From contig NZ_PJRS01000041.1 of the NCBI RefSeq assembly GCF_002858925.1, positions 1 to 64,000 of the forward strand: a stretch of 64,000 nucleotides of DNA, in the 5' to 3' direction. The notes beneath the pieces are model-generated. The model was not told the DNA's origin. It saw only the letters and a list, made by a program, of their open reading frames with translations, and did no database searches. The position numbers were made by a program, and so were the translations under genes. The DNA is from Caulobacter zeae (GTDB lineage: Bacteria; Pseudomonadota; Alphaproteobacteria; Caulobacterales; Caulobacteraceae). Position 1 is the stretch's first letter, and every line of letters starts with the position of its first letter. Positions 241-17,989 of this stretch are shown piece by piece.

Positions 241-292
241 TGCCTTGTCGGCAGGCGCTCCGTCAGAGGGCGCGGCCGGGAGGAGACGTCTC

Positions 293-1606
293 ATGACCCA
301 GGACCCCACAGCACGCGATTCAAGAGGCCGGGAGGGCCTCGCGCCGCTGGTGCTGATCGTCGCGCTGTTCTTTCTGTGGGGCGTGGCCAACAACCTCAAC
401 GACGTGCTGATCCCGCACCTGAAGAAGGCCTTCTTCCTCACCGACCTGCAGTCCGGCCTGGTGCAGTCGGCCTTCTATCTGGGCTACTTCTTCCTGGCCC
501 TGCCGGCGGGCCTCCTGATGCGCCGCTACGGCTACAAGGCCGCCGTGATCGTGGGCCTTGTGCTGTTCGGGGCGGGGGCGCTGCTGTTCTGGCCGGCGGC
601 CGAGCTGCGCCGCTACGAGCTGTTCCTGAGCGCGCTGTTCGTCATCGCCTCGGGCCTGGCGTTCCTGGAGACCTCGGCCAATCCGCTGATCACCGTGCTG
701 GGGGATCCGGCCAAGGCCGAACAGCGGCTGAACCTGGCCCAGGCCTTCAATCCGCTGGGCGCGATCACCGCCGTGGTGGTCGGCCGCCAGTTCATCCTGT
801 CGGGCGTGGAGCCGACGAAAGCCGAATTCGCGGCCATGACGCCGGCGCAGCTGTCGGCCTTCCAGGCCGCCGAGGCGCAGTCGACCCAGATCCCGTACCT
901 GATCATCGCCGCCGTGGTGCTGACCTGGGCGCTGCTGGTGGCCTTCACCCGCTTTCCGGTCCAGGCCAGCCGTCCGAGCGCCGACGCGCCGGAAGACAAG
1001 GCCGACAAGCCGATCCTTGGCCTGTTCTCGCGCCCGCGCTTCCTGTTCGGGGTGGCGGCGCAGTTCTTCTATGTCGGCGCCCAGGTGGGCGTGTGGAGCT
1101 ACATGATCCGCTACGGCCAGGACCAGGTTCCGGGCATGGGCGAGAAGACGGCGGCGGCCTATCTGTCGTGGTCGCTGGTCGGCTTCATGGCCGGACGCTT
1201 CGCCGGCACGGCCTTGATGAGCCGGGTCGATCCCTCGCGGCTGATGGCGCTGTTCGCCGCCGCCAACGTGGCCTTGACCCTGGTGGCCGTGTCGGTCGGC
1301 GGGCGCACCGGCCTGCTGGCCCTGGCGGCCACCAGCTTCTTCATGTCGATCATGTTCCCGACCATCTTCGCCAGCTCTCTCAAGGGTCTGGGGCCGCTGA
1401 CCAAGACCGGCTCGTCGTTCCTGGTGATGAGCATCGTCGGCGGGGCGGTGCTGCCGGCGGCGATGGGCGCGCTGTCGGACGCCAGCTCGATCCGGACGGC
1501 GATCCTCGTGCCCTGCGCCTGCTTCGCCGTGGTCGGCCTGTTCGCGATCACCGCCCGCCGGCGCGAGGTGAGCGCCCACGACGCCGTTCTGGTCGGAGGC
1601 CACTGA
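293..1606 (+). CDS. fucP: L-fucose:proton symporter, FucP-type MFS permease
   Basis: A 437-residue protein of the FHS/FucP branch of the major facilitator superfamily, expected to bring L-fucose across the inner membrane with protons. The N-terminal segment FLWGVANNLNDVLIPHLKK and the LETSANPLI motif around residues 120-130 are typical of FucP/GluP proteins. About twelve hydrophobic segments run through the sequence. The ATG at 293 is chosen over an upstream TTG at 245 because GGAGGAG lies about 8 bases before it. It begins an operon with the dehydrogenase (2-base gap), lactonase and IclR regulator. Neighbouring L-fucose enzymes favour fucose over other hexoses, though close relatives carry glucose, galactose or other sugars. 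Confidence 0.88.
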   Translation: MTQDPTARDSRGREGLAPLVLIVALFFLWGVANNLNDVLIPHLKKAFFLTDLQSGLVQSAFYLGYFFLALPAGLLMRRYGYKAAVIVGLVLFGAGALLFWPAAELRRYELFLSALFVIASGLAFLETSANPLITVLGDPAKAEQRLNLAQAFNPLGAITAVVVGRQFILSGVEPTKAEFAAMTPAQLSAFQAAEAQSTQIPYLIIAAVVLTWALLVAFTRFPVQASRPSADAPEDKADKPILGLFSRPRFLFGVAAQFFYVGAQVGVWSYMIRYGQDQVPGMGEKTAAAYLSWSLVGFMAGRFAGTALMSRVDPSRLMALFAAANVALTLVAVSVGGRTGLLALAATSFFMSIMFPTIFASSLKGLGPLTKTGSSFLVMSIVGGAVLPAAMGALSDASSIRTAILVPCACFAVVGLFAITARRREVSAHDAVLVGGH

Positions 1607-1608
1607 GG

Positions 1609-2622
1609 ATGATGGACGTTCTGGTCTGCGCGGCGCCGGGCGAGCTGGTGCTCGAGCGGAGGCCGACGCCGACGCCTGGCCCGGACGAGGTGCTGTTGCG
1701 TGTGCGCAGGGTAGGGGTGTGCGGCACCGACATGCACATCTATCGCGGCACCCAGCCCTACCTGTCCTATCCCCGGGTGATGGGCCACGAGCTGTCGGGC
1801 GAGGTCGTGTCGGCGCCAGCGGGCGGCGGCCTGGCGCCAGGCGACCATGCCTATGTCATGCCTTACCTGTCGTGCGGGACGTGCGCGGCCTGCGCCAAGG
1901 GCAAGACCAACTGCTGCATGAACATCCGGGTGCTGGGCGTGCACATGGACGGAGGGCTGGCCGAGTACCTGGCCGTGCCGCAGGGTTTCGTGCGCAAGGT
2001 CGAGGGCGTGGGCCTGGACGAGGCGGCCATGGTCGAGTTCCTGGCCATCGGCGCCCACGCCGTGCGGCGGGCACGGATCGAGCCGGGGCAGAGCGCCCTG
2101 GTGGTCGGGGCGGGGCCGATCGGCATCGCCGCGGCCCTGTTCGCCCGGCTGGCCGGGGCGCGGGTGACGGTGCTGGACGGCCGCGAGGACCGGCTGGGGT
2201 TCTGCGCCGAGCACCTGGGCGTCGAGCGGACGCTGACGGTCGGCGAGGATACGGCGCAAGCGCTGTCGACCCTGACCGACGGCGCGTTCTTCGACGTGGT
2301 GTTCGACGCCACCGGCAATCCGGCGGCCATGCAGCAGGGGTTCGCCTATGTCGGCCACGGCGGCAGCTATGTGCTGATATCGGTGGTGGCGGCCGACATC
2401 ACCTTTTCCGACCCGGAGTTCCACAAGCGCGAGATGTCGCTGCTGGGCAGCCGCAACGCCACGATCGAGGACTTCGACCACGTGCTGGCGGCGATCCGCG
2501 CGGGCCTGGTGCCGACGGCGGCGCTGAACAGTCACAGGGCCGACCTGCGGGATCTGGCGCAGGCCCTGTCGGGCTGGATGGAGCCGTCGGCCGGGGTGAT
2601 CAAGGCCATCGTCGCGTGCTGA
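1609..2622 (+). CDS. Zinc-dependent alcohol/sugar dehydrogenase (MDR family)
   Basis: A 337-residue medium-chain dehydrogenase. Catalytic-zinc residues are visible at C38 (GVCGTD) and H60-E61 (GHE). The structural-zinc cysteines are C89, C92, C95 and C103. The Rossmann glycine motif VVGAGPIG lies near residue 165. It resembles L-gulonate/galactitol-phosphate/threonine dehydrogenase-type polyol oxidoreductases. The start at 1609 lies two bases after the permease stop, and its 3' end overlaps the lactonase start. It is one of three oxidoreductases in the locus, so it may oxidise L-fucose itself, a keto-deoxy intermediate, or a side substrate such as L-galactose; the sequence does not settle which. 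Confidence 0.85.
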   Translation: MMDVLVCAAPGELVLERRPTPTPGPDEVLLRVRRVGVCGTDMHIYRGTQPYLSYPRVMGHELSGEVVSAPAGGGLAPGDHAYVMPYLSCGTCAACAKGKTNCCMNIRVLGVHMDGGLAEYLAVPQGFVRKVEGVGLDEAAMVEFLAIGAHAVRRARIEPGQSALVVGAGPIGIAAALFARLAGARVTVLDGREDRLGFCAEHLGVERTLTVGEDTAQALSTLTDGAFFDVVFDATGNPAAMQQGFAYVGHGGSYVLISVVAADITFSDPEFHKREMSLLGSRNATIEDFDHVLAAIRAGLVPTAALNSHRADLRDLAQALSGWMEPSAGVIKAIVAC

Positions 2623-3419
2623 TCGACGCCCACTGCCACGTCTGGCGGATCGGACGGAACGACCATGAATGGCCTGCGGCGGACCTGCCGGCGATCCATC
2701 GTGATTTCGGGCTGGACGACCTGCGCGCGGCGGGCGGGCCCGATAGCGTGGTGCTGGCGCAGTCGCAGCCGAGCGAGCGCGACACCGCCTGGCTGCTGGA
2801 GCTGGCGGCCGCCGATCCGATTGTACTGGGCGTGGTCGGCTGGACCAACCTGGCCGCGCCAGATGCGCCGGCGAAGATTGCGGCGTTGGCCGGGTATCCC
2901 AAGCTGAAGGGCCTGCGGCCGATGTTGCAGGACCTGGCGTCCGACTGGATCCTGGATCCGGCGTTGGAGCCGGCGATCACGGCGATGGTGGAGGCCGGCT
3001 TGGCCTTTGACGCCCTGGTGCGGCCGCGCCATCTGTCGTCCTTGCTGGCCTTCGTGCGGCGCTGGCCGGAGCTGCGGGTGGTGATCGACCACGGCGGCAA
3101 GCCGGCGATCGGGGAGGGGAGGCTTGATCCCTGGCGGGACGACATCGCCGCCCTCGCCGCCGAGCCGGGCGTGCACTGCAAGCTGTCGGGCCTGCTGACC
3201 GAGGCCGGCGACCGCCCGACCGTAGAGTTGGTCGCGCCCTATGCTGCGCATCTGCTGGAGGTCTTCGGCCCCGAACGGCTGATGTGGGGCAGCGACTGGC
3301 CGGTGCTGAACCTGGCCGGCGACTACGCGGCCTGGCGGGACACGTGCGAGGCCTGGGTCCCGTCGGCCGGGCGAGCGGCGCTATTTGGCGAGACGGCGCG
3401 ACGATTCTATCGCTTATAG
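2616..3419 (+). CDS. Amidohydrolase family sugar lactonase (probable L-fuconolactonase)
   Basis: A 267-residue protein of the COG3618 amidohydrolase-2 family. It starts with the metal-binding DAHCHVW motif at the extreme N-terminus and carries later VIDHGGKP and MWGSDWPV motifs supplying conserved His and Asp. Members hydrolyse 1,4- and 1,5-lactones of L-fucose, L-rhamnose, L-galactose or 2-pyrone-4,6-dicarboxylate. The GTG start at 2616 overlaps the dehydrogenase end by 7 bases, suggesting translational coupling. In this operon the natural role is L-fucono-lactone to L-fuconate, matching the amidohydrolase of the Xanthomonas, Burkholderia and Campylobacter fucose pathways. Confidence 0.85.
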   Translation: MLIDAHCHVWRIGRNDHEWPAADLPAIHRDFGLDDLRAAGGPDSVVLAQSQPSERDTAWLLELAAADPIVLGVVGWTNLAAPDAPAKIAALAGYPKLKGLRPMLQDLASDWILDPALEPAITAMVEAGLAFDALVRPRHLSSLLAFVRRWPELRVVIDHGGKPAIGEGRLDPWRDDIAALAAEPGVHCKLSGLLTEAGDRPTVELVAPYAAHLLEVFGPERLMWGSDWPVLNLAGDYAAWRDTCEAWVPSAGRAALFGETARRFYRL

Positions 3420-3424
3420 AAGCC

Positions 3425-4204
3425 ATGTCCGACGCGCCCGCCAAGAAGCGAGAATATCGCGCTCCCGCCCTGGAAAAGGGCCTCGACGTGCTGGAGCTGC
3501 TGGCCGCGCACCGGGGCGGCCTGACCCTCGCGCAGATCTCGGCGGCGCTCGATCGCTCGTCCAGCGAGCTTTTCCGGATGGTCCAGGTGCTGGAGGCGCG
3601 GGGCTATGTCGGCCGCGCCGCCGACGAGGACGGCCTGGTGCTGACCAACAAGCTGTTCGCCCTGGGCATGACCCGGGCGCCGGCCAAGGACCTTCTGGAA
3701 GCGGCGCTGCCGGAGATGAGGGCCTCGTGCCAGGTCACCGGCCAGTCGTGCCACCTGGCCGTGGCCAGCGGCGACCAGATGGTGGTGGTGGCGCGCATGG
3801 AGGCCCCGGGCGACCAGGGCTATTCGGTGCGCGTGGGCTATCGCCGCAAGATCGTCGAGGCGACCTCGGGCCTCGTCCTGTTCGCCTTCCAGCCTGAGCG
3901 GGTGCGCGAGCGCTGGGGCGCGCAACTGCGCGACGGTGCGACCAAGGCGGCCTGGGAGGCCTTCCTGGCCGCCGCCGCTCAAGCCCGCAAGGACGGCCAT
4001 GTGCAGGCCGCCAGCTACGTGACCTCGGCGGTGATCGACCTGTCGGTGCCGGTTCACGGGGCCGACGGCGTGGTGGCGGCGCTGACCTGCCCCTATGTCG
4101 ACACGCCCAGCGCCATCTCGATGCCCGACACCATCGCCAACCTGCAACGCCACGCCGCCGCCATCAGCGCCGAGATCGGCCCGACGGCGCGCAACGGGAT
4201 CTAG
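3425..4204 (+). CDS. IclR-family transcriptional regulator of the fucose locus
   Basis: A 259-residue IclR protein. The N-terminal winged helix covers about residues 10-75 (EKGLDVLELLAAHRGGLTLAQI then the recognition helix around SSSELFRMVQVLE). The C-terminal effector domain spans about 85-250. It closes the permease operon, starting 5 bases after the lactonase stop. Its stop codon shares four bases (CTAG) with the stop of the opposing operon. IclR-type regulators commonly sense the pathway sugar or an intermediate; the C. jejuni fucose locus also encodes an IclR member. The tandem TTCATATWTGA sites at 211-240 are its most obvious candidate operators. Whether it activates or represses cannot be read from sequence. 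Confidence 0.85.
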   Translation: MSDAPAKKREYRAPALEKGLDVLELLAAHRGGLTLAQISAALDRSSSELFRMVQVLEARGYVGRAADEDGLVLTNKLFALGMTRAPAKDLLEAALPEMRASCQVTGQSCHLAVASGDQMVVVARMEAPGDQGYSVRVGYRRKIVEATSGLVLFAFQPERVRERWGAQLRDGATKAAWEAFLAAAAQARKDGHVQAASYVTSAVIDLSVPVHGADGVVAALTCPYVDTPSAISMPDTIANLQRHAAAISAEIGPTARNGI

Positions 4205-5412
4205 GGAAGCCCAGCCAGATCCCGGTCCATGGCCGCGCCGTCGAAGGGCACGACGATGATCTTGCTGCCATGGCCGTTGTTTCCGGTCTGGTCGTCCTTG
4301 GGCGTGTCGACGACGGCGAAGGTCATAGCGACGACGTGGCCGTTCTCCATCACCACGCCGGGGCGTTCGAGCTTGTTCCAGTTGTTCTTCGTGCCGTCGG
4401 CGTAGCGGATGAAGTCGGCGCCGGGCTCGTAGGCCAGGCCCTGGACGCGCCAGCCGGTGATCCCGTCGCGCGAGACCAGGTGGTAGGCGCGGCGCTCGCG
4501 CCACTGGTTGACGACGATGTGGTAGAGGCCGCCGCTGAACCACAGCACCGGATCCTCGAAGGCGCGCATGTCGCGCTGTGGCACGCCGTCCAGGCCGCGA
4601 TAGACGCTGTCGCCCATCACCGTGTAGGGGCCGAGGATCCCCGTCCTGCTGATCAGGATCTGGCCCGAGCGCGGCACGATCTGGTAGGCGCCGTCGGGGC
4701 GCAGCAGGACGCTGAAATTGGCCGGCTTGGCGGGCGTCGCCGTGGGCGTGTCGCGCAGGGCTGCGTCGCCCGGCGTCTTGACCAGCTGGAAGCGGCTCTG
4801 GTCGAGGCTGATGGTTCCCAGCTGCGTCCAGGGGCCGTCGAGGCTGTCCGACACGAAGACGTCGCCGCCGCGCGTTTCGCTGACCACGACGGCGTAGCGG
4901 CCGTCGTGCAGCTTCAGGGCCGTGACGTTGTGGCCAAGGCCGCCCTGGTTATCGGGCCAGGTCAGGCCGCGGTCGCGATAGGGACCAAAAAGGCTGTCGC
5001 TGATCGCGCTGACCCCCAGGGACCGGCCCCAGGCCTTGTGGCCCAGCGCCTGGTCCCAGCGGCTGGCGAACATGCGGTACTTGCCGTCGGGGCCTTTCAG
5101 GATCTGGCCGTCCCAGTAGTTCCACCGGGCCATCGAGAGGTCTTCGAGGCCGTTGCGGGGATCGCGCGGGCCGACCTCGGCTGCGCCCCAGGCCGTCGTC
5201 GACAGCTTGGCGCGCGGCATGGGCTTGAAGTAGCCGATGAAGGGCTTGGGCCCGAGCGTCGGGACGACTTCCGTTGCAGCGGGGGCGGCCGGGACCTGAG
5301 CCGCCGCGACGGCGGGCAGGGCGACCGGAGCCAGGACCAACGCCGCCGCCAGGGCCAGCATGCTTGAACGCGACGACATCGAGCTACTCCGCTTGAACAC
5401 CTGGCGCGTCAT
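4201..5412 (-). CDS. Secreted five-bladed beta-propeller protein, putative glycoside hydrolase
   Basis: A 403-residue exported protein. The N-terminus has a basic stretch, a hydrophobic core (SSMLALAAALVLAPVALPA) and a likely cleavage site after VAAA, about residue 38. The mature part has repeated propeller-like strands with DGKYRMFASR, GPYTVMGDS, FEDPVLWFSGGLYH and VVNQW elements, reminiscent of GH43/GH117-type glycosidases (clan F/J folds). I cannot assign a family with certainty. The ATG overlaps the upstream fucosidase stop as ATGA; a second ATG eleven codons later would leave a conventional signal peptide. As last gene of the catabolic operon beside a GH95 fucosidase, it probably acts on the same polysaccharide. 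Confidence 0.7.
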   Translation of the reverse strand: MTRQVFKRSSSMSSRSSMLALAAALVLAPVALPAVAAAQVPAAPAATEVVPTLGPKPFIGYFKPMPRAKLSTTAWGAAEVGPRDPRNGLEDLSMARWNYWDGQILKGPDGKYRMFASRWDQALGHKAWGRSLGVSAISDSLFGPYRDRGLTWPDNQGGLGHNVTALKLHDGRYAVVVSETRGGDVFVSDSLDGPWTQLGTISLDQSRFQLVKTPGDAALRDTPTATPAKPANFSVLLRPDGAYQIVPRSGQILISRTGILGPYTVMGDSVYRGLDGVPQRDMRAFEDPVLWFSGGLYHIVVNQWRERRAYHLVSRDGITGWRVQGLAYEPGADFIRYADGTKNNWNKLERPGVVMENGHVVAMTFAVVDTPKDDQTGNNGHGSKIIVVPFDGAAMDRDLAGLP

Positions 5413-7754
5413 GCCCGCTTCAGCACGCCGTCGCGGGCGGCCAGCCGCACGCGCTGGCCCTTCTTGAGGTCGAGATCCAGCGTCGAGCCTGCCAGGACCA
5501 CGGTGTGCCTGCCGGCCTCCTTTGCGGTCAACACGGCCTCGGTCAGCTTGCCGCCGCTCCACCGCACGTCGACGGCGATCGCGCCACGGGCGCGCAGGCC
5601 GGTCATCCGGCCGGTGGGCCAGCTCTTGGGCAGGGCGGGCAGCAGGTAGATGCCGTCGTTGCGGCTTTGCATGACCAGCTCGGTCATGCCCGAGGTCCCG
5701 CCGAAATTGCCGTCGATCTGGAACGGCGGGTGGGCGTCGAACATGTTGGGATAGGTGCGTTCGGGGCCCAGCAACAGCTTGAGAATGCTGTGGGCGCGGT
5801 CGCCGTCGCCCAGGCGGGCCCAGAGGTTCAGGCGCCAGGCGATGGCCCAGCCGGTCGAGAGGTCGCCACGGGTGACCAGCGAGGTCCTGGCGGCCTTGGC
5901 GAGATCCGGCGTGGTGTCGACCGAGATCTGGTCGGACGGGAACAGGCCGTAGAGGTGCGAGACGTGGCGGTGATGGATGTCGTTGGCGTCGGCGTCCCAG
6001 TCCTCCTGCCACTCCTGGAGCTGGCCGTCCTTGCCGATCTTGTAGGGGGCGAGCTTGTCGCGGGCGGCCTTCACCTCAGCGACGAAGGCGGCGTCGGGAC
6101 CGAGAATGGCCTCCGCCTTCAGGCAGTTGTCGAACAGGTCGCGGATGATCGCCTGGTCCATGGTCGGCCCGGCGACCAGGGACGAACCGTGGCCGTGGTT
6201 GTTCTCGGGCGAGATCGACGGGTTGGTGACCAGAACGCCGAATTTCGGGTCGACCACCAGGGTGTCGAGGAAGAAGCGGGCCGAGCCCTTCATCAGCGGA
6301 TAGACGCGGGCCAGGTAGGCCTTGTCGCGGCCGTAGTCGTAGTGGTCCCAGACGTGCTTGCACAGCCAGGCGCCGCCGGTGGGCCAGACGCCGAACTTGG
6401 CGCCGTCGATGGGGCCGGTGGCGCGCCACAGGTCGGTGTTGTGGTGGGTGACCCAGCCGCGCGCGCCGTACATGGCCCTGGCCATGCGCTCGCCGGTCTG
6501 GGCGATGTCGGAAACCAGCGCGATCAGCGGCTCGACCAGTTCGGGCAGGTCGGTCGGCTCGGCCGGCCAGTAGTTCATCTCGGTGTTGATGTTGATCGTG
6601 TACTTGCTGCCCCAGGGGGCGAAGGTCTTGTCGTTCCAGACGCCTTGCAGGTTGGCCGGCTGGCTGCCGGGGCGCGAGCAGGCGATCAGCAGGTAGCGGC
6701 CGTACTGGAAGTACAGCGCCTCCAGCGACGGATCGTCGGTGGTCGGCGACTGCCTGATCCGCTCGTCGGTGGGCAGGAGATCGGCGCGGGTGCGGCCGAA
6801 GTCGACGCTGAAGCGGCGGAAGAGGGCGCGGTGATCGGCCTGGTGCTCGGCCAGGATCTTCGCCCAGGGCTTGCCGGTAAGCGTGGACAGCGTGGCCTTG
6901 TTCAGCGCGACCGGGTCGCCCGAGACGTCGTCATAGCGGCGATAGCTGGTGGCGGCGGCGATCAGCAGCAGCACCTCGTCGGCGCCCTTCACCGACAGCT
7001 TGCCGTCAGCGCCCGAGACCTGGCCGCCCTTGGCGCGGACCTCGACCCGCGTCTCGAAGGTCAGGCGGGCGTCGATGCCCTGCGAGGCCTCGTTCTTGCC
7101 GGCCAGGATCAGGTGCGCGCCTTCCACCGACGAGACCGGCTTGGACTTCAGCGGCGAGCTGAACGACAGGTCGACATCGATCGCGCCCTTGCGGCCGGCG
7201 GTCAGGCGCACGGCGATGACGCCGTCGGGATGGCTGGCGATCACCTCGCGCAGATAGCTGACGCCGCCGGCGGTAAACCGGGTCGTGGTGATCGCACCGT
7301 CGAGGTCGAGGTCGCGGACATAGCCTTCGACGGCGTCGGACAGGCCGGGGAAGTCGAGCTTGAGGTCGCCGATGGTCTGGTAGGACATCTGGCGCTTGGG
7401 CAGGGCCATGAACTTGGCCTCGGCCAGGTCGGTGGCCTTGGCGTAATCGCCGGCGTTTATCAGGCGGCGGATCTCGGGCAGGGCGGCGTTGGCCTCGGGA
7501 TTGATCGGCTCGTAGGGGCCGCCCGCCCACAGGGTGTCTTCGTTCAGTTGCAGGCGTTCGGCCGCCACGCCGCCGAACACCATGGCGCCCAGCTTGCCCG
7601 AGCCGACGGGCAGGGCCTCGACCCATTCCTTGGCCGGCTGGCGATACCACAGGCGCGGGGCGGAGGTCTTGGCCGGCGCGGCGCGCACGGGCGAGGCGGC
7701 GACCAGGGAGGCGCCGGCGGTGGCGGCCAAAGCGGTTCTGCGGGTCACATTCAT
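5409..7754 (-). CDS. GH95 alpha-L-fucosidase, exported
   Basis: A 781-residue protein matching glycoside hydrolase family 95, inverting exo-enzymes that release terminal alpha-1,2-linked L-fucose (some members prefer L-galactose). Visible family motifs are LPVGSGKLGAMVFGG near residue 50, LNEDTLWAGGP, NINTEMNYWPAEPTDLPEL, THHNTDLWRATGP, WPTGGAWLCKHVWDHY, and HVSHLYGLFPSDQI toward the C-terminus. An N-terminal TRRTALAATAGASLVAA segment resembles a Tat signal, implying export folded. Length is usual for the family. It lies 64 bases after the mutarotase gene and overlaps the beta-propeller gene, so the operon couples fucose release with fucose oxidation. Confidence 0.93.
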   Translation of the reverse strand: MNVTRRTALAATAGASLVAASPVRAAPAKTSAPRLWYRQPAKEWVEALPVGSGKLGAMVFGGVAAERLQLNEDTLWAGGPYEPINPEANAALPEIRRLINAGDYAKATDLAEAKFMALPKRQMSYQTIGDLKLDFPGLSDAVEGYVRDLDLDGAITTTRFTAGGVSYLREVIASHPDGVIAVRLTAGRKGAIDVDLSFSSPLKSKPVSSVEGAHLILAGKNEASQGIDARLTFETRVEVRAKGGQVSGADGKLSVKGADEVLLLIAAATSYRRYDDVSGDPVALNKATLSTLTGKPWAKILAEHQADHRALFRRFSVDFGRTRADLLPTDERIRQSPTTDDPSLEALYFQYGRYLLIACSRPGSQPANLQGVWNDKTFAPWGSKYTININTEMNYWPAEPTDLPELVEPLIALVSDIAQTGERMARAMYGARGWVTHHNTDLWRATGPIDGAKFGVWPTGGAWLCKHVWDHYDYGRDKAYLARVYPLMKGSARFFLDTLVVDPKFGVLVTNPSISPENNHGHGSSLVAGPTMDQAIIRDLFDNCLKAEAILGPDAAFVAEVKAARDKLAPYKIGKDGQLQEWQEDWDADANDIHHRHVSHLYGLFPSDQISVDTTPDLAKAARTSLVTRGDLSTGWAIAWRLNLWARLGDGDRAHSILKLLLGPERTYPNMFDAHPPFQIDGNFGGTSGMTELVMQSRNDGIYLLPALPKSWPTGRMTGLRARGAIAVDVRWSGGKLTEAVLTAKEAGRHTVVLAGSTLDLDLKKGQRVRLAARDGVLKRA

Positions 7755-11447: not shown

Positions 11448-11534
11448 CCCGTTTATTTATGAAATCGATGTTGCTGGTAAAATTCCATCGCTCAGGCAGC
11501 GAGTCAATCGGCCAAGCATCAAGCGCAGCCATCC
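11448..11534 (-). promoter_or_regulatory. Promoter region of the leftward fucose catabolic operon
   Basis: This AT-richer gap lies before the aldo/keto reductase. Read on the minus strand it contains CGATTTCATAAATAA (11453-11467), sharing ten bases with the fucP upstream region, and the quasi-palindrome TGGTAAAATTCCA on the plus strand (11474-11486). The first motif is very close to the start codon, where a bound regulator could block transcription or translation. Operator function is inferred from the shared motif only. Confidence 0.4.
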
Positions 11535-11569
11535 GGCCAAAGAAAAAGGGCCCGCCGTGAAGCGGGCCC
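11535..11569 (-). terminator. Intrinsic terminator of the TonB-receptor gene
   Basis: On the minus strand an 8-bp GGGCCCGC/GCGGGCCC stem (arms 11548-11555 and 11562-11569) with a 6-base loop is followed by TTTTTCTTT. It lies about 28 bases after the receptor stop codon. Confidence 0.85.
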
Positions 11570-11597
11570 AGTCAGGGGAAGCAGGAGAAGAAGGGGT

Positions 11598-14042
11598 CTA
11601 GCGGCGCACGCGCAGGGTGACGCCGAAGGTGCGCGGATCGCCCAGCGAGCCGGTGATCGCGCCGGTGTTCCCCGCGCCCAGCGACAGGTAGTAGAGCTTG
11701 TCGAAGACGTTGCGGCCCCAGACCTGCAGGTCCCAGCTGCCGTCTTCCGCGCCGACGCCGGCGCGCAGGTTCAGCAGGGTGTAGCCCTTGATCTTCGAAT
11801 ATTCCGAGTTCGAGGCGCTGGTGTAGTAGGACGACTTGTAGCTGGCGTCGTAGCCGGCATAGGCCGTCAGGCCATCGCTGCGCCAGGTTCCGGCCGCCTT
11901 GCGATACTCGCCGCCGGTCGAGGCGGCCCACAGCGACGCGCCGGGCAGGCGGCGGCCGGTGAGGTTGCAGTAGGTCGACAGCTGGATCTCGATCGGGCAG
12001 GCGGCCTGCTCGTAGCTGGTGTAGCTGGCGTCGTTGTAGGTGGTCGAACCGTAGAGGGTCAGGCCCTGGATCGGCGCGGCCCGCAGATCCAGCTCGACGC
12101 CGCGGCTGCGCACGCTGCCGGCGTTGGTCAGGTAGCTGGCGTTGTTGATCAGGTTGACGGCGGTGGTCTGGTAGCCGTCGTCGTTCGTCCAGAAGAGCGC
12201 CAGGTTGGCGGTCAGGCGGCGGTCGAACCAGGTGCTCTTCAGGCCCGCCTCGTAGGCGTCGATGGTCTCCGGCGCGATGACCGGATCGACGGCGTTGGCG
12301 CCGGAAGTGTTGATGTTCGACAGGTTCAGGCCGCCGGCCTTGTAGCCCCGGGCGTAGGTCGCATAGACGAGCGGGCCGTTGTCGAAGGTGTAGGCCAGGG
12401 TGACGTTGCCGGTCAGGCTGTCGCCCGAGGTCTTGGACGAGAACGTATTGGCCGCGCCGAAGCGCGCGCGCAGGGTTAGGGCCGTGGCCCGGTCGGCGGC
12501 GCTGAGGCCCGACAGGTCGGCGCCCCAGGCCGTCTGGTCGAACCAGCCGGTCATCTTCTCGTAGGTGTAGCGCAGGCCGCCGGTGATATCGAAGCGGTCG
12601 GTGACGTGCCAGGTGCCTTGCGCGAAGGCCGCCGCGCTGGTGGTCTCGGGGCTGGAGTGGCTGACGATCGAGTAGTTGTTCAGCGCCGCCGCCCGCACCG
12701 TCGCCGAGGCCGCCGCCGGCGCCAGCAGCCAGTCGGCCGCCGCCGGGCCGTAATAGTTGACCGCCTCGGCCTCGAGGTCCTGCCAGAAGTAGTAGAGGCC
12801 CGCGACGTAATCGAGCTTGCGGTCGCCTTCCGAGCGGATGCGCAGTTCCTGGCTGAACTGCTGCTGGTCGTTGTCCTGGTGGGCGTCGATGATCGCCGAG
12901 ACGGTCGTGCCGTCGGCGTCGTTGTGCGGGCGCCAGTGCCAGCCGCGCCAGGCGGTGACCGAGGTGATCGTCGCGTCGGCCAGCTTATAGTCGACGATGG
13001 CCGAGACCCCGCCGTGGGTCTCGAAATAGCTGTTCTTGGTGTTGACCGAGACCCGGCGCGCCTCTGGATCGATCGGCGGCGGCGTGAAGCCGATGCGCGC
13101 CGTGCGGGCCAGGTAGCCGTTCGGATAGGCCGCGCCGCTGTCGGCGTAGTTGGTGAAGAGGCCGGTCAGGACGCTGGCGGCGGTGTTGGAGTACTGCTGG
13201 CCGTAGTCGCCCGAGAGCTTGATGGAGAGGCTTTCGTTCGGCGTCAGCAGGAACTGAACCCGGCCGCCGAAGTCGTGATAATCCTGGGTTTTCGACCCGT
13301 CATAGACGTTGGTCATGTAGCCGCCGCGCTGGGTGTTGGCCAGCGAGACGCGGTAGGCCAGCTTGTCCTCGACGATCGGGCCCGAGGCGATCAGGTGGGC
13401 CTGGAAGTAGTCGTAGTTGCCTCCGGTGACGTCGGCCGAGAACTCCGGCGTGAACTTCGGCTCCTTGGTGGCGATCACGAGGGCGCCGGCCGAGGTGTTC
13501 TTGCCGAAGAGCGTGCCTTGCGGGCCGCGCAGCACCTGGACAGAGTCGAGGTCGGCCAGGTCGAACACCGCCTGGCCCGGACGGCCCAGATAGACCTGGT
13601 CGAGATAGACGCCGACCGCCGATTGCAGGCCGTCGTTATAGACCGAGACGTTGTTGCCCAGGCCGCGGATGTTGATGCTGGTGTTGCGCGGGTTGGTGAC
13701 GCTGACCGACAGGCTGGGCGACAGGGTCTGGAGGTCGCGGACGTTGAAGGCGCGGGCGGCCTCCAGCTGGGCGCCGCCGAAGGCCGAGACGGCGACGGGC
13801 ACGGTCTGGGCGTCCTCGTCGCGGCGGCGGGCGGTGACGACCACGGCGTCGAGGCCCACGGCGTCGTCCGCCGAGGCGGTGGTCGGCTCGGGGCTCGCAG
13901 GCGTCTCGGCGGCGAAGGCGGGCGCGGCGCCGGCCATCAGGGCCACGCACGAGGCGGCCAAGGTCAGGCGGCGAAGCGTCGCGCCGTGGTTGTGGTCACG
14001 GCGAGTATTCGCCTGGTGGATAGAAACGAGTACGCCCGACAT
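11598..14042 (-). CDS. TonB-dependent outer-membrane receptor (putative fucan oligosaccharide transporter)
   Basis: An approximately 814-residue TonB-dependent receptor. A signal sequence (TLRRLTLAASCVALMAGAAPAFA) precedes a TonB-box-like segment LDAVVVTARRRDE. The plug domain follows (INIRGLGNNVSVYNDGLQSAVGVYLDQVYLG; LRGPQGTLFGKN) and then a 22-strand-type barrel ending in a terminal aromatic/Arg strand (GDPRTFGVTLRVRR). The start is uncertain: ATG at 14042 gives a long basic n-region, and other in-frame starts lie upstream. No SusD-like lipoprotein is adjacent, as expected for proteobacterial systems. It is divergent from the sulfatase operon, suggesting import of the polysaccharide fragments those enzymes process. 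Confidence 0.85.
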   Translation of the reverse strand: MSGVLVSIHQANTRRDHNHGATLRRLTLAASCVALMAGAAPAFAAETPASPEPTTASADDAVGLDAVVVTARRRDEDAQTVPVAVSAFGGAQLEAARAFNVRDLQTLSPSLSVSVTNPRNTSINIRGLGNNVSVYNDGLQSAVGVYLDQVYLGRPGQAVFDLADLDSVQVLRGPQGTLFGKNTSAGALVIATKEPKFTPEFSADVTGGNYDYFQAHLIASGPIVEDKLAYRVSLANTQRGGYMTNVYDGSKTQDYHDFGGRVQFLLTPNESLSIKLSGDYGQQYSNTAASVLTGLFTNYADSGAAYPNGYLARTARIGFTPPPIDPEARRVSVNTKNSYFETHGGVSAIVDYKLADATITSVTAWRGWHWRPHNDADGTTVSAIIDAHQDNDQQQFSQELRIRSEGDRKLDYVAGLYYFWQDLEAEAVNYYGPAAADWLLAPAAASATVRAAALNNYSIVSHSSPETTSAAAFAQGTWHVTDRFDITGGLRYTYEKMTGWFDQTAWGADLSGLSAADRATALTLRARFGAANTFSSKTSGDSLTGNVTLAYTFDNGPLVYATYARGYKAGGLNLSNINTSGANAVDPVIAPETIDAYEAGLKSTWFDRRLTANLALFWTNDDGYQTTAVNLINNASYLTNAGSVRSRGVELDLRAAPIQGLTLYGSTTYNDASYTSYEQAACPIEIQLSTYCNLTGRRLPGASLWAASTGGEYRKAAGTWRSDGLTAYAGYDASYKSSYYTSASNSEYSKIKGYTLLNLRAGVGAEDGSWDLQVWGRNVFDKLYYLSLGAGNTGAITGSLGDPRTFGVTLRVRR

Positions 14043-14268
14043 CGCGAGGAGCCCCCATAGACTGCAAGAACAACCGCAGAAAACGACGGCCATTGACGCG
14101 TCGGCGGGCCCTTCGCCGATGCGTCGTCGTTGCGGTGCGGAGGGAGCTTTAAATCCCAACTACTCCGATCGGTATTGCAGAAATTCTCAACAGGGCGTTT
14201 CGAAATTGTCGTAAGAGCGCTCGGAGCCGGAGGCCTTAGGGGGAAGGGAGAACACGAGGGAAAGCGTC
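14043..14268. promoter_or_regulatory. Divergent promoter region between TonB receptor and sulfatase
   Basis: This 226-bp gap holds AT-richer stretches (TTTAAATCCC at 14148, CAGAAATTCTC near 14176, the palindrome TTTCGAAA at 14199-14206) and must drive both directions. The sulfatase has a good ribosome site (GAGGG 8 bases before ATG). I could not identify a confident operator. Confidence 0.4.
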
Positions 14269-16041
14269 ATGAAGACCCATCACACGACCCTGCGCGGACG
14301 GCTTCTGGCCGGCGCCCTGATCGCCGCCACCAGCCTCGCGGGCGGCCTCGCCAGCGCCGCGGAACCTACGGTTCCAGCCGCGACCCGCGCGGTCGAGAAG
14401 CGTCCGAACTTCTTGATCATCGTCGCCGATGACTTGGGCTATTCTGATCTCGGAGCCTTCGGCGGCGAAATCGAGACGCCCAACCTCGACGCCCTGGCCA
14501 AGGCCGGCGTGCGGTTGTCGGGCTTCCACACCGCGCCGACCTGCTCGCCGACCCGCTCGATGCTGATGACGGGGTCCGACAACCACCAGGTGGGCCTGGG
14601 CTCGATGGCCGAGGTGCTGACCCCCGGCCAGAAGGGCAGGCCCGGTTACGAGGGCTATCTCAACGAGCGCTCGGTGACCGTCGCCGAGCTGCTGCGCGAC
14701 GGCGGCTATCGCACCCTGATGGCCGGCAAGTGGCACCTTGGCCTGGCCGACGACCAGTCGCCGACGGCGCGCGGCTTCGAGCGCTCCTACGCCCTGCTGC
14801 AGGGCCTGCAGAACCACTTCGGGGAGGACCAGACCGAGGCTTACAAGGCCGCCGGCGTCGCCTCGACCTTCCGCGAGGACGGCAAGGTCGTGACCTATCC
14901 GAAGGGCGTCTACTCGGCCGACTTCTACGGCGACAAGATGGCCCAGTTCATCCGCGAGGGCGCGGGCGACAGCCGGCCGTTCTTCGCCTACCTGACCTTC
15001 ACCGAGCCGCACTGGCCGCTGCAGGCGCCGCCCGAAACCATCGCCAAGTACAAGGGCCGCTACGACGCCGGCTACGAGGCGCTGCGCGAACAGCGGCTGG
15101 CCAGGCTGAAGGCGCTGCGCCTGGTTCCCAAGGACGTCAAGCCGCACCCGTTCGTCGACACGCCGGCCTGGAGCTCGCTGACGCCTGAGCAGAAGAAGGA
15201 CCAGTCGCGCCGCATGGAGATCTACGCGGCCATGGTCGACCGCATGGACCAGAACATCGGCAAGGTGGTCGCCGCCCTGAAGGCCTCGGGCCAGTACGAC
15301 AACACCGTCATCGTCTTCCTGTCGGACAACGGCGCCGAGGGCAGCCGCATCGACACCATCCGCGGCGTGCCCGATCCGGCCAAGCTGGCGACGCTGCCGG
15401 TCGACAACAGCTTCGACAACCTGGGCGCGGGCTCCTCGCACGTAGGCTACGGCCCCGGCTGGGCGCAGGCGGCCACGGCGCCGACCCGCCAGGTCAAGGG
15501 CTACACCACCGAGGGCGGCATCCACACGCCGGCCATCGTCGAGGGGCCGGGCGTCAAGGGCGACGGCCGCATCGTCGATTCCCTGGCCCACGTGGCCGAC
15601 GTCGAGGCGACGGTGCTGGAACTGGCCGGCGTGAAGCGCCCCGAAACCTATCGCGGCCGCGCGGTGGCCCCCTCGATCGGTCGTTCGTGGGTTCCTGCGC
15701 TTGCCAGCGCCGACGCCGGTGTGCGCGGCCCGCAGGACCTGGTGGCCTGGGAGCTGTTCTTCCGCCGCGCCGTGCGCCAGGGCGACTGGAAGGCGGTCTA
15801 CCTGCCGTCGGCCCCGGGCGGGGCGGCCTATTCCCGCGAAGCCGTGCTGCCGGCCAACTGGCAGCTCTTCAACCTCAAGAGCGACCCGGCCGAGGCCGTC
15901 GACCTGGCGTCCAGTCAACCCGACAAGCTGAAGGAGCTGGTCGAGGCCTGGAACCGCTACGCCGCCCAGAACGGCGTGGTCCTGCCGCCGCCGCAGCCGG
16001 CCGCCGGTGCGGCCGCGCCCGCAAAGTCCGGCGCGCGCTGA
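14269..16041 (+). CDS. Secreted type I sulfatase (arylsulfatase family)
   Basis: A 590-residue exported sulfatase. A signal peptide occupies residues 1-30 (cleavage near ASA/AE). The metal-binding VADDLGYSD has D54-D55. The modification motif C92-S-P-T-R96 marks Cys92 as the residue converted to formylglycine. Further motifs are GKWHLG near 160 and LSDNGAEG near 345. Sulfatases of this class hydrolyse sulfate esters on carbohydrates or aryl groups. The gene is immediately followed, with overlapping TGATG, by its presumed activating enzyme. In a fucosidase/fucose locus, desulfation of a sulfated fucan or similar glycan is the likely job, but the substrate cannot be read from sequence. Confidence 0.92.
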   Translation: MKTHHTTLRGRLLAGALIAATSLAGGLASAAEPTVPAATRAVEKRPNFLIIVADDLGYSDLGAFGGEIETPNLDALAKAGVRLSGFHTAPTCSPTRSMLMTGSDNHQVGLGSMAEVLTPGQKGRPGYEGYLNERSVTVAELLRDGGYRTLMAGKWHLGLADDQSPTARGFERSYALLQGLQNHFGEDQTEAYKAAGVASTFREDGKVVTYPKGVYSADFYGDKMAQFIREGAGDSRPFFAYLTFTEPHWPLQAPPETIAKYKGRYDAGYEALREQRLARLKALRLVPKDVKPHPFVDTPAWSSLTPEQKKDQSRRMEIYAAMVDRMDQNIGKVVAALKASGQYDNTVIVFLSDNGAEGSRIDTIRGVPDPAKLATLPVDNSFDNLGAGSSHVGYGPGWAQAATAPTRQVKGYTTEGGIHTPAIVEGPGVKGDGRIVDSLAHVADVEATVLELAGVKRPETYRGRAVAPSIGRSWVPALASADAGVRGPQDLVAWELFFRRAVRQGDWKAVYLPSAPGGAAYSREAVLPANWQLFNLKSDPAEAVDLASSQPDKLKELVEAWNRYAAQNGVVLPPPQPAAGAAAPAKSGAR

Positions 16042-16961
16042 TGCGGCGCGGCCTTCCTGGTGCAGCGGCGGTGGTCGCCCTGGTCGCGGGCCTTGCGGCC
16101 GGCGGCTTCACGACCGCCGATCCGGCGGGCGTCGAGGTCGCGGCGATCCGCGCCGCGCCCGCGGGCGCCTGCAAGGCCCAGGAAGGCCGCGCCTTCATTC
16201 CCGCCGGCGAGGTGTCGCTGGGCGAGGACGGTCCGGGGCGGCCGGGCAAGGCGGTGAAGGTCGAGGGCTTCTGGCTCGATCGCCACGAGGTGACCAACCG
16301 CCAGTTCGCCGCCTTCGTCGACGCCACCGGCTACGTCACGCAGGGCGAGCGCGACGGGGCCTCGGCGGTGTTCGTCCAGCCCGAGCACCTGTCGGGCATG
16401 GACGACGCCGGCCAATGGTGGAAGCTGGTCCGCAAGGCTAGCTGGCGCCGTCCCCACGGCGGCGGGGCCGATGACCTGGCCCATGCCGACGAGCCGGTGG
16501 TGCACGTGGCCTATGCCGATGCGGCCGCCTACGCCCGCTGGGCCGGGGGGCGCCTGCCCACCGAAGCCGAGTGGGAGCGGGCCGCCCGCGGCGACCAGTC
16601 GGGCCCGCGCGCACCGCAGGCCTGGGCCTATGACGACGACGGCAAGCCCACCGCCAACACCTGGCAGGGCGAGTTCCCGCTGGCCCAGAGCAACGAAGAT
16701 CACTTCACGGGCCTAGCGCCGGTCGGCTGCTTTTCGCCTAACGCCTTCGGCCTGGTCGACATGATCGGCAACGTCTGGGAGTGGACGGCCAGTCCCGCCG
16801 GAACCTCGGGCGTCGAGCGCCTGATCAAGGGCGGCTCGTTCCTCTGCGCCTTCAACTACTGCGCCAACTTCCGCCCCGCCGCCTGGCAGGCCCAGGAGGA
16901 GGGGATCGGAACCTCGCACGTCGGGTTCCGGGTGGCGTACGAGAAACCCTCCCTCTCTTAA
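16041..16961 (+). CDS. Formylglycine-generating enzyme (sulfatase-modifying factor), exported
   Basis: A 306-residue FGE-sulfatase domain protein with an N-terminal hydrophobic export signal (residues about 5-22). Family motifs are FWLDRHEVTNRQFAAFV, PVVHVAYADAAAYARWAG, RLPTEAEWERAARG, NVWEWT near 245, and GGSFLCAFNYC near 265. C269 and C274 have the five-residue spacing of the copper-binding cysteine pair of aerobic FGEs. It converts the sulfatase Cys92 to formylglycine using oxygen. The ATG overlaps the sulfatase stop, so the two are co-translated. A signal on both proteins implies that modification could take place outside the cytoplasm. Confidence 0.92.
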   Translation: MRRGLPGAAAVVALVAGLAAGGFTTADPAGVEVAAIRAAPAGACKAQEGRAFIPAGEVSLGEDGPGRPGKAVKVEGFWLDRHEVTNRQFAAFVDATGYVTQGERDGASAVFVQPEHLSGMDDAGQWWKLVRKASWRRPHGGGADDLAHADEPVVHVAYADAAAYARWAGGRLPTEAEWERAARGDQSGPRAPQAWAYDDDGKPTANTWQGEFPLAQSNEDHFTGLAPVGCFSPNAFGLVDMIGNVWEWTASPAGTSGVERLIKGGSFLCAFNYCANFRPAAWQAQEEGIGTSHVGFRVAYEKPSLS

Positions 16962-16977
16962 AGAGAGAGGGATTTCT
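16941..16977. terminator. Bidirectional terminator overlapping two convergent stop codons
   Basis: A perfect 8-bp stem (CCCTCTCT 16951-16958, AGAGAGGG 16964-16971) has the TAA stops of the FGE gene (16959-16961) and the GH43 gene (16958-16960 on the minus strand) in or beside its loop. GAGAAA at 16941 and TTTCTC at 16973 can lengthen the helix. There is no strong T-tract on either side. Confidence 0.55.
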
Positions 16978-17989
16978 CGTCCCCGTCCAAATCCACTCGC
17001 TGCCGCACGATTTCCAGTCGGTCGCCCGCGTCGCGCATCTCGTAGAGCTTGCCCCGGGCGTTCTTGAATGGGCGGTGGACCACCATCATCAATTGGCCGT
17101 CGAAGCGGGTGAACAGCATGCCGTGGCCGCTGTCGTGGCGGACCAGCGGCGGCAGTTGCTCCCACGGTCCCTCGATCGTTCCGCTCTTTGAGCGCGCCTG
17201 CGACTGGACGTAGCCGTTCTTGTCGTAGCTGGACCACAGCATCAGCAACTGGCCCGTCATGGTCGTGAAGAGCTGCGGGCCGTCGGTGACATAGGCGAGG
17301 TCACCTTCCGGCTGCGTCTTGCCGTCGGCCCACGGCGCCTGGCTGGCGGTGAAGAGTGTGCGGGACGGGCCGGCGGCGGCCAGATCGTCGGTCAGGGGCA
17401 GGGCCTCGATCGCACCGTCGCCCACCTGCAGCCACTCGCGCGAATAGACGTACAAGGGCCGCCCGTCGGGAGCGACGTAGAGCGTGCCGTCCAGGGTCAT
17501 CAGCGCTTTCGGCGCGACCGGCTCGCCGCCTCGGACCACGGTGAACGGCCCCTCCGGACTGTCGGCCATGGCCAGGATCGTGCCGCGCCGGTAGGGCTTG
17601 CGCCGGCCGGCCGGCGGCAGCAGGGCGGCCTCGTCGTGGAAGGTGGCGAAGAGGAACCAGCGGCCCCGCCACTGGTGCACTTCCGGCGCCCAGGCTCCGC
17701 CCTTGAACCAGGCGTCAGTAGGCGCCGAGAACACGCAGCGCGGCTTTTCCCAATCCAGCAGATCGCGGCTGACGTACATCATCGTGCCCAGGCCCGGCGT
17801 TCCGCTCAGACGGGCGATGTTGGAGGTGTAGAGCCGGTAGAGGCCCGCCTTCTGGTCGGCGATCATGAACGGGTCGTGCAGCGGCATGTTCGGCAGGCGC
17901 AGCATCGGTTCGGCGCGGACGGCGGCGGGCGCCAGCGCCAGGGCGGCGGCCCCGAGCGCCAGCGCCCGTCGCGAGGTGTCGATGGGCAT
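16958..17989 (-). CDS. GH43-family glycoside hydrolase, exported
   Basis: A 343-residue GH43-like beta-propeller. An SRRALALGAAALALAPAAVRA leader resembles a Tat signal. MPLHDPFMIAD near residue 35 supplies the usual catalytic-base Asp, and GAWAPEVHQWRGRWFLFATF is typical of clan GH-F. TLDGTLYV near 165 gives the pKa-modulating Asp. The general-acid position, usually Glu in an EGP motif, reads TDGP here, so activity or the acid assignment needs care. GH43 enzymes include arabinofuranosidases, xylosidases and galactosidases. The gene converges on the FGE gene with overlapping stops. Confidence 0.8.
   Translation of the reverse strand: MPIDTSRRALALGAAALALAPAAVRAEPMLRLPNMPLHDPFMIADQKAGLYRLYTSNIARLSGTPGLGTMMYVSRDLLDWEKPRCVFSAPTDAWFKGGAWAPEVHQWRGRWFLFATFHDEAALLPPAGRRKPYRRGTILAMADSPEGPFTVVRGGEPVAPKALMTLDGTLYVAPDGRPLYVYSREWLQVGDGAIEALPLTDDLAAAGPSRTLFTASQAPWADGKTQPEGDLAYVTDGPQLFTTMTGQLLMLWSSYDKNGYVQSQARSKSGTIEGPWEQLPPLVRHDSGHGMLFTRFDGQLMMVVHRPFKNARGKLYEMRDAGDRLEIVRQRVDLDGDEKSLSL

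What the first reader, a model, noticed from the sequence alone, without database searches (positions are those of the whole stretch)
245..17989. A complete-looking fucan/L-fucose utilisation island with Campylobacter-like catabolic genes
Seen: FucP, amidohydrolase lactonase, IclR regulator, DUF718 mutarotase, SDR and a split UxaA dehydratase. This is the same unusual set found in the C. jejuni fucose locus. Here they are joined to a GH95 fucosidase, a beta-propeller putative glycosidase, a TonB receptor, a sulfatase with its activating enzyme and a GH43. Inference: the island takes a sulfated fucose-containing polysaccharide from outer-membrane import through to 2-keto-3-deoxy-fuconate in a freshwater/soil alphaproteobacterium.
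Basis: partly seen in the sequence, partly recalled or inferred. Interest (0 to 1): 0.75.

Follow-up and report, generated by a model that had tools for sequence, protein, structure and literature searches.

The report
Soil Caulobacter fucose-eating genes, mostly known
This stretch of a Caulobacter chromosome carries a largely known set of genes for breaking down the plant sugar L-fucose, next to an apparently separate sulfate-related gene pair, and its missing last enzyme is probably supplied by the cell's rhamnose pathway.

Summary
The genes are real: 15 intact genes at 293-17989, in the same order in four same-genus genomes (C. radicis, C. endophyticus BI, C. sp. 602-2, one unnamed). The interpretation needs correcting.

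It is a route III (oxidative) L-fucose pathway, not the Campylobacter aldolase route: the SDR matches L-2-keto-3-deoxyfuconate 4-dehydrogenase and keeps nine active-site residues; no aldolase is in the island.

(2) The chain stops one enzyme short. The hydrolase gene fucG sits between SDR and mutarotase in C. radicis and strain T5M6 but is absent here and in 13 of 20 other clusters. The probable substitute is a 62%-identical 2,4-didehydro-3-deoxy-L-rhamnonate hydrolase in an L-rhamnose cluster on contig C3, because both pathways reach the same diketo acid.

(3) "Sulfated fucan" is weakly supported. The sulfatase is closest to Pseudomonas arylsulfatase AtsA; the TonB-sulfatase pair occurs elsewhere without fucose genes, and a conserved terminator lies between TonB and the fucose operon. 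The GH95 is closest to a Xanthomonas xyloglucan fucosidase.

(4) The 402-aa protein is a predicted five-bladed propeller, itself under every Pfam cut-off.

The parts
211..241 (+). Two palindrome-like sites (TTCATATTTGAC, TTCATATATGAT) upstream of fucP; candidate operator of the IclR regulator
   Evidence: 3 sites with up to 2 mismatches in 64 kb (expected 0.11), at 211, 230 and 11452; pattern read off this site, so only 11452 is independent. Pair kept upstream of fucP in 8 of 13 other clusters scanned; one site in 3 more; not in L086 and L087.
293..1606 (+). FucP, L-fucose:H+ symporter
   Evidence: TIGR00885 418 bits, cut-off 280
1609..2622 (+). Zn-dependent alcohol dehydrogenase (MDR, RspB-like; role unknown)
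   Evidence: PF08240/PF00107; PRK10083 182 bits, under cut-off 376; PDB best 4ilk RspB; between FucP and lactonase in 19 of 20 clusters
2616..3419 (+). Amidohydrolase, probable L-fucono-1,5-lactonase (FucB)
   Evidence: PF04909; NF052480 189 bits, under cut-off 400
3425..4204 (+). IclR-family regulator
   Evidence: PF09339, PF01614
4201..5409 (-). 402-aa protein, predicted five-bladed beta-propeller, glycosidase-like, under every Pfam cut-off
   Evidence: AlphaFold2 pLDDT 86.7, pTM 0.83; GH62 23.5, GH117 23.0, GH159 22.9, GH43 22.8 as best Z
5409..7754 (-). GH95 alpha-L-fucosidase
   Evidence: PF22124 582 bits; best PDB 7kmq, 937 bits; catalytic N/N and D aligned by my reading
7819..8163 (-). 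L-fucose/L-rhamnose-type mutarotase (DUF718, FucM)
   Evidence: PF05336 79.6 bits
8165..8893 (-). SDR, probable L-2-keto-3-deoxyfuconate 4-dehydrogenase (FucF)
   Evidence: 8xwk 342 bits; R148, R192, R214, W252 and five other residues mutated in the paper kept, by my reading of the alignment
8906..10114 (-). UxaA-type L-fuconate dehydratase, large part (FucC)
   Evidence: PF20629, PF04295; 9 cysteines kept in 23 of 23 sequences
10111..10419 (-). UxaA-type dehydratase, N-terminal small part
   Evidence: TIGR03248 26 bits, weak; beside the large part in 22 of 23 loci, the other (L085) being cut by the contig end
10416..11447 (-). Aldo-keto reductase, probable L-fucose 1-dehydrogenase (FucA)
   Evidence: PF00248 164 bits; nearest PDB entries are L-galactose dehydrogenases
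11452..11463 (+). Third operator-like site, upstream of the AKR operon
11548..11569 (-). Intrinsic terminator-like hairpin after the TonB gene, before the AKR operon
   Evidence: stem, loop and T tail identical in 5 of 5 sequences aligned, window and 4 relatives; -20.2 kcal/mol, z -2.8
11598..14036 (-). TonB-dependent receptor (start uncertain); paired with the sulfatase, probably not part of the fucose module
   Evidence: PF00593, PF07715; pair without fucose genes in the stretches read of L140 and L141
14269..16041 (+). AtsA-like arylsulfatase (CSPTR motif)
   Evidence: 1hdh 605 bits; carrageenan sulfatases at most 146 bits; motif
16038..16961 (+). Formylglycine-generating (sulfatase-activating) enzyme
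   Evidence: PF03781 213 bits; GGSFLCAFNYC motif (that this is the FGE motif is recalled)
16958..17989 (-). GH43 glycosidase, substrate unknown
   Evidence: PF04616 85 bits

Best explanation
Two neighbouring modules. Module 1 (293-11447) is an L-fucose module: a GH95 alpha-L-fucosidase and a secreted propeller protein free fucose from plant cell-wall glycans; FucP imports it; mutarotase, AKR dehydrogenase, lactonase and the split UxaA-type dehydratase give 2-keto-3-deoxy-L-fuconate; the SDR oxidises this at C4. The resulting 2,4-diketo acid is split to pyruvate and L-lactate not by an enzyme of the island but by the hydrolase of the L-rhamnose cluster (G000:C3:61692-62537), whose pathway makes the same intermediate; the lldD gene of that cluster can take on the lactate. 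fucG once lay between SDR and mutarotase and was lost repeatedly. Module 2 (11598-16961, perhaps with the GH43) is a TonB receptor with an AtsA-like sulfatase and its activating enzyme, probably for sulfate esters. Shown: gene content, synteny, presence or absence of fucG, conserved residues, separability of the TonB-sulfatase pair. Inferred: all enzyme activities, the sharing of the hydrolase, the direction loss rather than gain, the plant substrate.
For: SDR: 342 bits to H. huttiense L-KDF dehydrogenase with R148/R192/R214/W252 kept (PMC11199699). fucG in C. radicis and T5M6 between SDR and mutarotase, absent from the window. In-cluster fucG in 7 of 21 clusters on the tree; at least 4 changes. 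All 14 fucG-less genomes on the tree have a hydrolase homologue elsewhere; in 13 of 14 it lies in an 8-gene cluster. In the window genome five genes of that cluster pass NCBIfam cut-offs: L-rhamnonate dehydratase, L-rhamnose mutarotase, L-rhamnose 1-dehydrogenase Lra1, LldD and, for the hydrolase, 2,4-didehydro-3-deoxy-L-rhamnonate hydrolase (521 bits, cut-off 500). The H83/E86 pair is kept in 8 of 8 such hydrolases checked. Precedent in vitro: H. huttiense C785_RS13675 with hydrolase C785_RS20550, related to the route III hydrolase SKA58_03585, turned L-KDF into lactate (data not shown there; PMC6336799). Split UxaA-type L-fuconate dehydratase proposed for P. mimosarum. GH95: 7kmq, the xyloglucan fucosidase XacAfc95, 937 bits. 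L081: GDSL esterase and pectinesterase by GH95; L083: GH2 N-domain protein. Operator-like sites upstream of fucP and AKR, none with up to 2 mismatches upstream of TonB, sulfatase or GH43.
Against: No activity, expression or growth data. H. huttiense KDF dehydrogenase also acts in D-arabinose breakdown, so the SDR does not prove fucose. A second such hydrolase is present in 6 of 7 genomes that keep fucG too, so its presence does not show that it allowed the loss. G032 has only a lone hydrolase. G039, left off the tree (4-kb contig, 87% complete draft), shows no fucG after the SDR and no hydrolase homologue at all. The role of the conserved Zn-ADH is unexplained. The TonB gene stays beside module 1 in 7 of 7 genomes of the window group, which a functional link would also explain, and sister cluster L081 has another TonB receptor next to GH95. 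No operator-like site was found in the 16 kb around the rhamnose cluster.
Confidence: 0.68

Rival explanations
1. One reading: one island for a sulfated fucose polysaccharide; TonB imports fragments, the sulfatase desulfates, GH95 and the propeller cut off fucose.
For: All 15 genes stay adjacent in 4 relatives read in full; the sulfatase and FGE keep their motifs; another TonB receptor lies beside GH95 in L081.
Against: Sulfatase is AtsA-like; TonB-sulfatase pair without fucose genes in G004 and G014; terminator; no second fucosidase or fucanase family found by Pfam among the 15 genes; none of the other 13 FucP-bearing clusters has a sulfatase, FGE, GH43 or propeller homologue in the stretch read.
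Confidence: 0.1
2. The true sugar is L-galactose or D-arabinose (same ring configuration); the RspB-like Zn-ADH could be an L-galactonate 5-dehydrogenase (LgoD-like) or a sugar 1-dehydrogenase.
For: AKR nearest to L-galactose dehydrogenases; UxaA-type enzymes serve D-arabinonate or L-galactonate elsewhere; lgoD lies in Halomonas fucose/fuconate loci (PMC5507952); an MDR L-fucose 1-dehydrogenase is known in Sulfolobus; E. coli FucP also carries L-galactose and D-arabinose (PMC13406643).
Against: GH95 in the same operon here and in or near the cluster in 13 of 20; the close GH95 relative is specific for L-fucose (PMC8245568), though the next, 4ufc at 676 bits, is an L-galactosidase.
Confidence: 0.15
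3. The pathway does not use the C3 hydrolase: KDF is cleaved by an aldolase elsewhere, or another FAH protein does the step.
For: Two DHDPS-family genes and five FAH-family genes in the genome; G039 shows neither fucG nor a close hydrolase.
Against: Neither DHDPS gene is on the island's contig; a KDF 4-dehydrogenase would make an aldolase needless; the other FAH proteins are at most 36% identical to FucG.
Confidence: 0.12

Closest known systems
Non-phosphorylating L-fucose pathway, route III (X. campestris; FucM-A-B-C-F-G in PMC11199699)
   Same: Mutarotase, 1-dehydrogenase, lactonase, dehydratase and KDF 4-dehydrogenase all present by family
   Different: Dehydratase is split UxaA type, not the enolase type of X. 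campestris; FucG absent; extra Zn-ADH
Campylobacter jejuni fuc locus (PMC6946681)
   Different: C. jejuni has DapA, FucX, a second transporter and Cj0489; here KDF dehydrogenase, AKR and Zn-ADH
Paraburkholderia mimosarum L-fucose cluster (PMC6336799)
   Same: Two-gene (heteromeric) UxaA-type L-fuconate dehydratase, proposed there from gene context
   Different: Rest of that cluster not compared here
XacAfc95, GH95 of the Xanthomonas xyloglucan locus (PMC8245568)
   Same: Close GH95 with the same catalytic residues
   Different: Here no GH74, GH31 or GH35 in the island
Pseudomonas aeruginosa arylsulfatase AtsA (1hdh)
   Same: Nearest solved structure, over 529 residues (the names AtsA and P. 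aeruginosa are recalled; one search says Arylsulfatase)
   Different: Here beside a TonB receptor and an FGE; substrate untested

Membership tests
Route III L-fucose pathway | KDF 4-dehydrogenase of the SDR type with substrate arginines and Trp | tested here: met
   342 bits to 8xwk; R148, R192, R214, W252 aligned to identical residues
Route III L-fucose pathway | L-2,4-diketo-3-deoxyfuconate hydrolase (FucG) in the cluster | tested here: not met
   none in the window; present in L019 and L041; nearest in the genome on contig C3, 62%
Route III L-fucose pathway | Mutarotase, 1-dehydrogenase, lactonase, dehydratase, permease | tested here: met
   by family; lactonase and dehydratase under NCBIfam equivalog cut-offs, so substrate not proven
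C. jejuni (aldolase) L-fucose locus | DHDPS-type KDF aldolase in the locus | tested here: not met
   none of 15 genes; two DHDPS genes, contigs C34 and C13
C. jejuni (aldolase) L-fucose locus | FucX-type SDR as L-fucose dehydrogenase | tested here: inconclusive
   6drr, 6ds1 and 4gvx not among the best 60 of 334 hits (60th 117 bits, KDF dehydrogenase 342); no direct comparison made
Sulfated fucan utilisation locus | Fucanase or several fucosidases plus polysaccharide-type sulfatases (definition recalled) | tested here: not met
   one GH95 only (Pfam may lack some fucanase families); sulfatase AtsA-like
GH95 | Catalytic domain and N/N base, D residues | tested here: met
GH43 (for the 402-aa propeller) | Pfam PF04616 over its cut-off | tested here: not met
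   window protein 13 bits, cut-off 32.2; but 8 of 29 family members match PF04616 at E<=0.1, best 3.9e-13, and 2 match GH32N
GH62/GH117/GH159/GH43 fold (for the 402-aa propeller) | Five-bladed propeller fold | tested here: met
   best Z 23.5, 23.0, 22.9 and 22.8 (tied), 8-14% identity for these; no family assigned
Type I sulfatase with FGE | C-x-P-x-R motif and FGE cysteines (motifs recalled) | tested here: met
   CSPTR at 92; GGSFLCAFNYC at 265
L-rhamnose route III cluster (contig C3) | Lra1 dehydrogenase, rhamnonate dehydratase, diketo-rhamnonate hydrolase | tested here: met
   NF053807 459/400, NF011968 766/393, NF053535 521/500 bits over cut-off

The most novel reading that the evidence does not exclude
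In Caulobacter the last enzyme of L-fucose breakdown has been deleted repeatedly from the fucose cluster (7 losses if fucG was never regained), and fucose catabolism has become dependent on the L-rhamnose operon, which makes the same last intermediate: two sugar pathways fused at their tail, with fucose growth needing a gene of another operon. In addition, the 402-aa protein stands for an unnamed propeller glycosidase family shared with Sphingomonas and the Limisphaerales phylum.
Probability: 0.45. Interest if true: 0.5.

Novelty: new member of a known kind. Interest (0 to 1): 0.35.

Why it matters
It places a two-part, UxaA-type L-fucose route in soil and plant-associated alphaproteobacteria, moves the likely source from marine fucan to plant cell-wall fucose, and gives a clean test of whether losing one pathway's last gene ties two sugar operons together. 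It also flags a propeller family worth assaying.

Tried and rejected
Looked for an aldolase end (DHDPS) near the island: none. Tested whether the SDR is the L-fucose dehydrogenase: its best matches are KDF dehydrogenases. A threonine/histidine position once proposed to tell GH95 fucosidase from galactosidase was dropped, since T395H did not change specificity in the Xanthomonas enzyme. First propeller model with 6 close sequences was poor (pLDDT 61) and was not searched. Propeller hits in L015 and L016 match only about 62-67 residues near the N terminus and were dropped. Hydrolase against UxaC: homologues in 19 of 21 UxaC-positive and 18 of 80 UxaC-negative genomes (Fisher p 1.4e-8); the genomes are related and 19 of the 21 are one genus, so this is not a clean test. 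The two UxaC-positive exceptions are G039 (fragment) and G080 (UxaC without a fucose cluster, L094). SDR-mutarotase junctions were read for deletion scars; suggestive only. Sigma-70 scan: 1 found, 1.1 expected. No CAZy library was at hand, so propeller and GH43 were not placed in CAZy. On the tree G047 has 38% of columns and G084 a long branch; supports inside the window group run from 87/86 and 88/78 to 100/99. In G083 the sulfatase (48%) has a TonB protein (30%) on the same strand, not divergent.

Literature, all by passages or listings, no paper read whole: PMC11199699 (outline, first part, passages), PMC6946681, PMC6336799, PMC5507952, PMC8245568, PMC10154630, PMC13406643 (passages). No paper on a Caulobacter L-fucose cluster or on fucose/rhamnose hydrolase sharing was seen in the listings (15 of 74; 15 of 263; 12 of 41; 5 of 5; 12 of 35); subscription papers are not held (Watanabe 2019 Mol Microbiol and Yew 2006 seen only as citations).


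Full report
WHAT IS THERE. The window is the start of contig C24 of a 5.39 Mb genome. Same-genus relatives are Caulobacter: contig lengths of G010, G020, G022 and G004 equal those of records titled C. radicis 695, C. endophyticus BI, C. sp. 602-2 and C. sp. D5. The 15 genes lie in five apparent transcription units: FucP-ZnADH-lactonase-IclR (293-4204, +); AKR-UxaN-UxaC-SDR-mutarotase-GH95-propeller (11447-4201, -); TonB receptor (-); sulfatase-FGE (+); GH43 (-). A strong terminator-like hairpin (11569-11548, -) follows the TonB gene and precedes the AKR operon; stem, loop and T tail are identical in 5 of 5 sequences aligned, the window and four relatives. The scan found 17 terminator-like sites where 7.5 are expected.

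CONSERVATION. All 15 genes are in the same order in G005, G010, G020 and G022; G010 has fucG in addition. T5M6 (L041) and C. endophyticus 774 (L042) show the same order as far as the loci reach; GH43 and FGE are outside them, and in L041 the sulfatase too. A UxaC homologue (E<=1e-60) is in 21 of 101 genomes (own and 100 relatives), 19 of the 21 in the window's genus. I read neighbourhoods in all 21 plus L041 and L042. FucP is in view in 20 of these 23; L085 and L093 are cut by contig ends and L094 has no fucose cluster. Of the 20, Zn-ADH is present in 19 (not L095), and GH95 in or near the cluster in 13. The propeller and the close TonB homologue occur in 7 of 20, the window group only. Among the other 13, none had sulfatase, FGE, GH43 or propeller homologues in the stretch read (tblastn, E<=1e-10, 40% coverage); L095 has a 27% TonB protein, and L081 has a different TonB receptor with an STN domain beside GH95 (similar long frames in L080 and L083 were not scanned).

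PATHWAY. The SDR is the KDF 4-dehydrogenase type: 342 bits to H. huttiense 8xwk against 117 bits at rank 60, with all nine residues that were mutated in that enzyme kept by my reading of the alignment. PMC11199699 (abstract, introduction and passages seen) gives the order FucM-A-B-C then FucF-G (route 3) or aldolase FucH (route 1). The C. jejuni locus (PMC6946681, passages) has DapA and FucX; the window has no DapA. The split UxaA-type dehydratase is known: P. mimosarum was proposed to have a heteromeric L-fuconate dehydratase (PMC6336799, passages). The AKR is nearest to L-galactose dehydrogenases, so it is the likely 1-dehydrogenase; the Zn-ADH has no firm role.

THE MISSING LAST STEP. In C. 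radicis (L019:10754-11605) and T5M6 (L041:6286-7131) a FAH-family gene lies between SDR and mutarotase; in the window, L017, L020, L021 and L042 the SDR stop runs almost directly into the mutarotase start. Over 21 clusters on a tree of five concatenated proteins, 7 have fucG and 14 do not; at least 4 changes are needed, 7 if only losses are allowed (the 7 is my count on the printed tree). The window genome's nearest FAH protein is 62% identical to FucG (C3:61692-62537). It lies in an 8-gene cluster in which five products pass NCBIfam cut-offs: L-rhamnose mutarotase, L-rhamnonate dehydratase, L-rhamnose 1-dehydrogenase Lra1, LldD, and the FAH protein itself as 2,4-didehydro-3-deoxy-L-rhamnonate hydrolase (521 bits, cut-off 500); the amidohydrolase is under its cut-off, and the IclR and the other SDR (38% to the window's) were not in that scan. 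All 14 fucG-less genomes on the tree have such a FAH homologue; its neighbourhood is the same 8-gene cluster in 13 of 14, G032 having a lone gene. PMC11199699 states that the rhamnose route gives the same diketo acid; PMC6336799 reports lactate from L-KDF with C785_RS13675 and hydrolase C785_RS20550 of H. huttiense (data not shown there).

WHICH POLYSACCHARIDE. The GH95 is closest to XacAfc95 of the Xanthomonas xyloglucan locus (937 bits; 676 for an L-galactosidase). In sister clusters GH95 sits by a GDSL esterase and a pectinesterase (PF01095, L081) and a GH2 N-domain protein (L083). The sulfatase is AtsA-like (605 bits; another arylsulfatase 242; carrageenan sulfatases up to 146). A sulfatase homologue (E<=1e-150) is in 8 of 101 genomes; in G004 and G014, which have no UxaC match, it is divergent from a TonB homologue (87% and 70%) with no fucose gene in the stretch read; the G004 contig ends inside the sulfatase gene. 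In G083 the arrangement differs. Operator-like sites occur 3 times in 64 kb (expected 0.11), upstream of fucP (2) and AKR (1), none upstream of TonB, sulfatase or GH43; the pattern was taken from the fucP sites.

THE PROPELLER PROTEIN. No Pfam or NCBIfam match at E<=0.001. Relatives: 9 loci in genome contigs (6 Caulobacter, 2 Sphingomonas, 1 Limisphaerales) and 13 of 288 genomes of the last one's phylum; one is fused to CBM96, another lies near a GH31. Of 29 members 8 match GH43 at E<=0.1, best 3.9e-13, so it borders on GH43; a profile of the 29 finds GH43 structures at best E 4.7e-4. With 29 sequences AlphaFold2 gave pLDDT 86.7 and pTM 0.83; GH62, GH117, GH159 and GH43 propellers match at tied Z of 22.8-23.5 (Foldseek best E 1.4e-10). 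It is likely a glycosidase; in G004 it stands away from any fucose gene in the 17 kb read.

VERDICT. A real, conserved, mostly known L-fucose module with a missing last enzyme, beside a separable sulfatase module.

Noticed in passing
window 35-111: tRNA-Met at the contig end; in the complete relative G005 it lies about 3.4 kb from tRNA-Ala and tRNA-Ile genes, so the contig may have broken in an rRNA operon (not checked for rRNA).
   Followed up: partly
L032:1794-5585 (G000:C3): 1263-aa protein with a GH43-like N-terminal part and a GH35 beta-galactosidase, beside the rhamnose cluster.
   Followed up: no
L107, L108, L112 (G045, G007, G057): A second FucG-like gene (71-75% identical), in L108 and L112 next to a 70-72% SDR: perhaps a further fucose-type cluster of different make-up.
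   Followed up: no
L058 (G010:C42:117719-118567): A further FucG homologue in C. radicis with an in-frame TGA, perhaps a pseudogene.
   Followed up: no
L119, L129, L133, L136, L139 (G140:C12 and C2): One genome of the Limisphaerales phylum carries six propeller-family copies.
   Followed up: no
window 16947-16972: Bidirectional terminator-like hairpin between the convergent FGE and GH43 genes.
   Followed up: no
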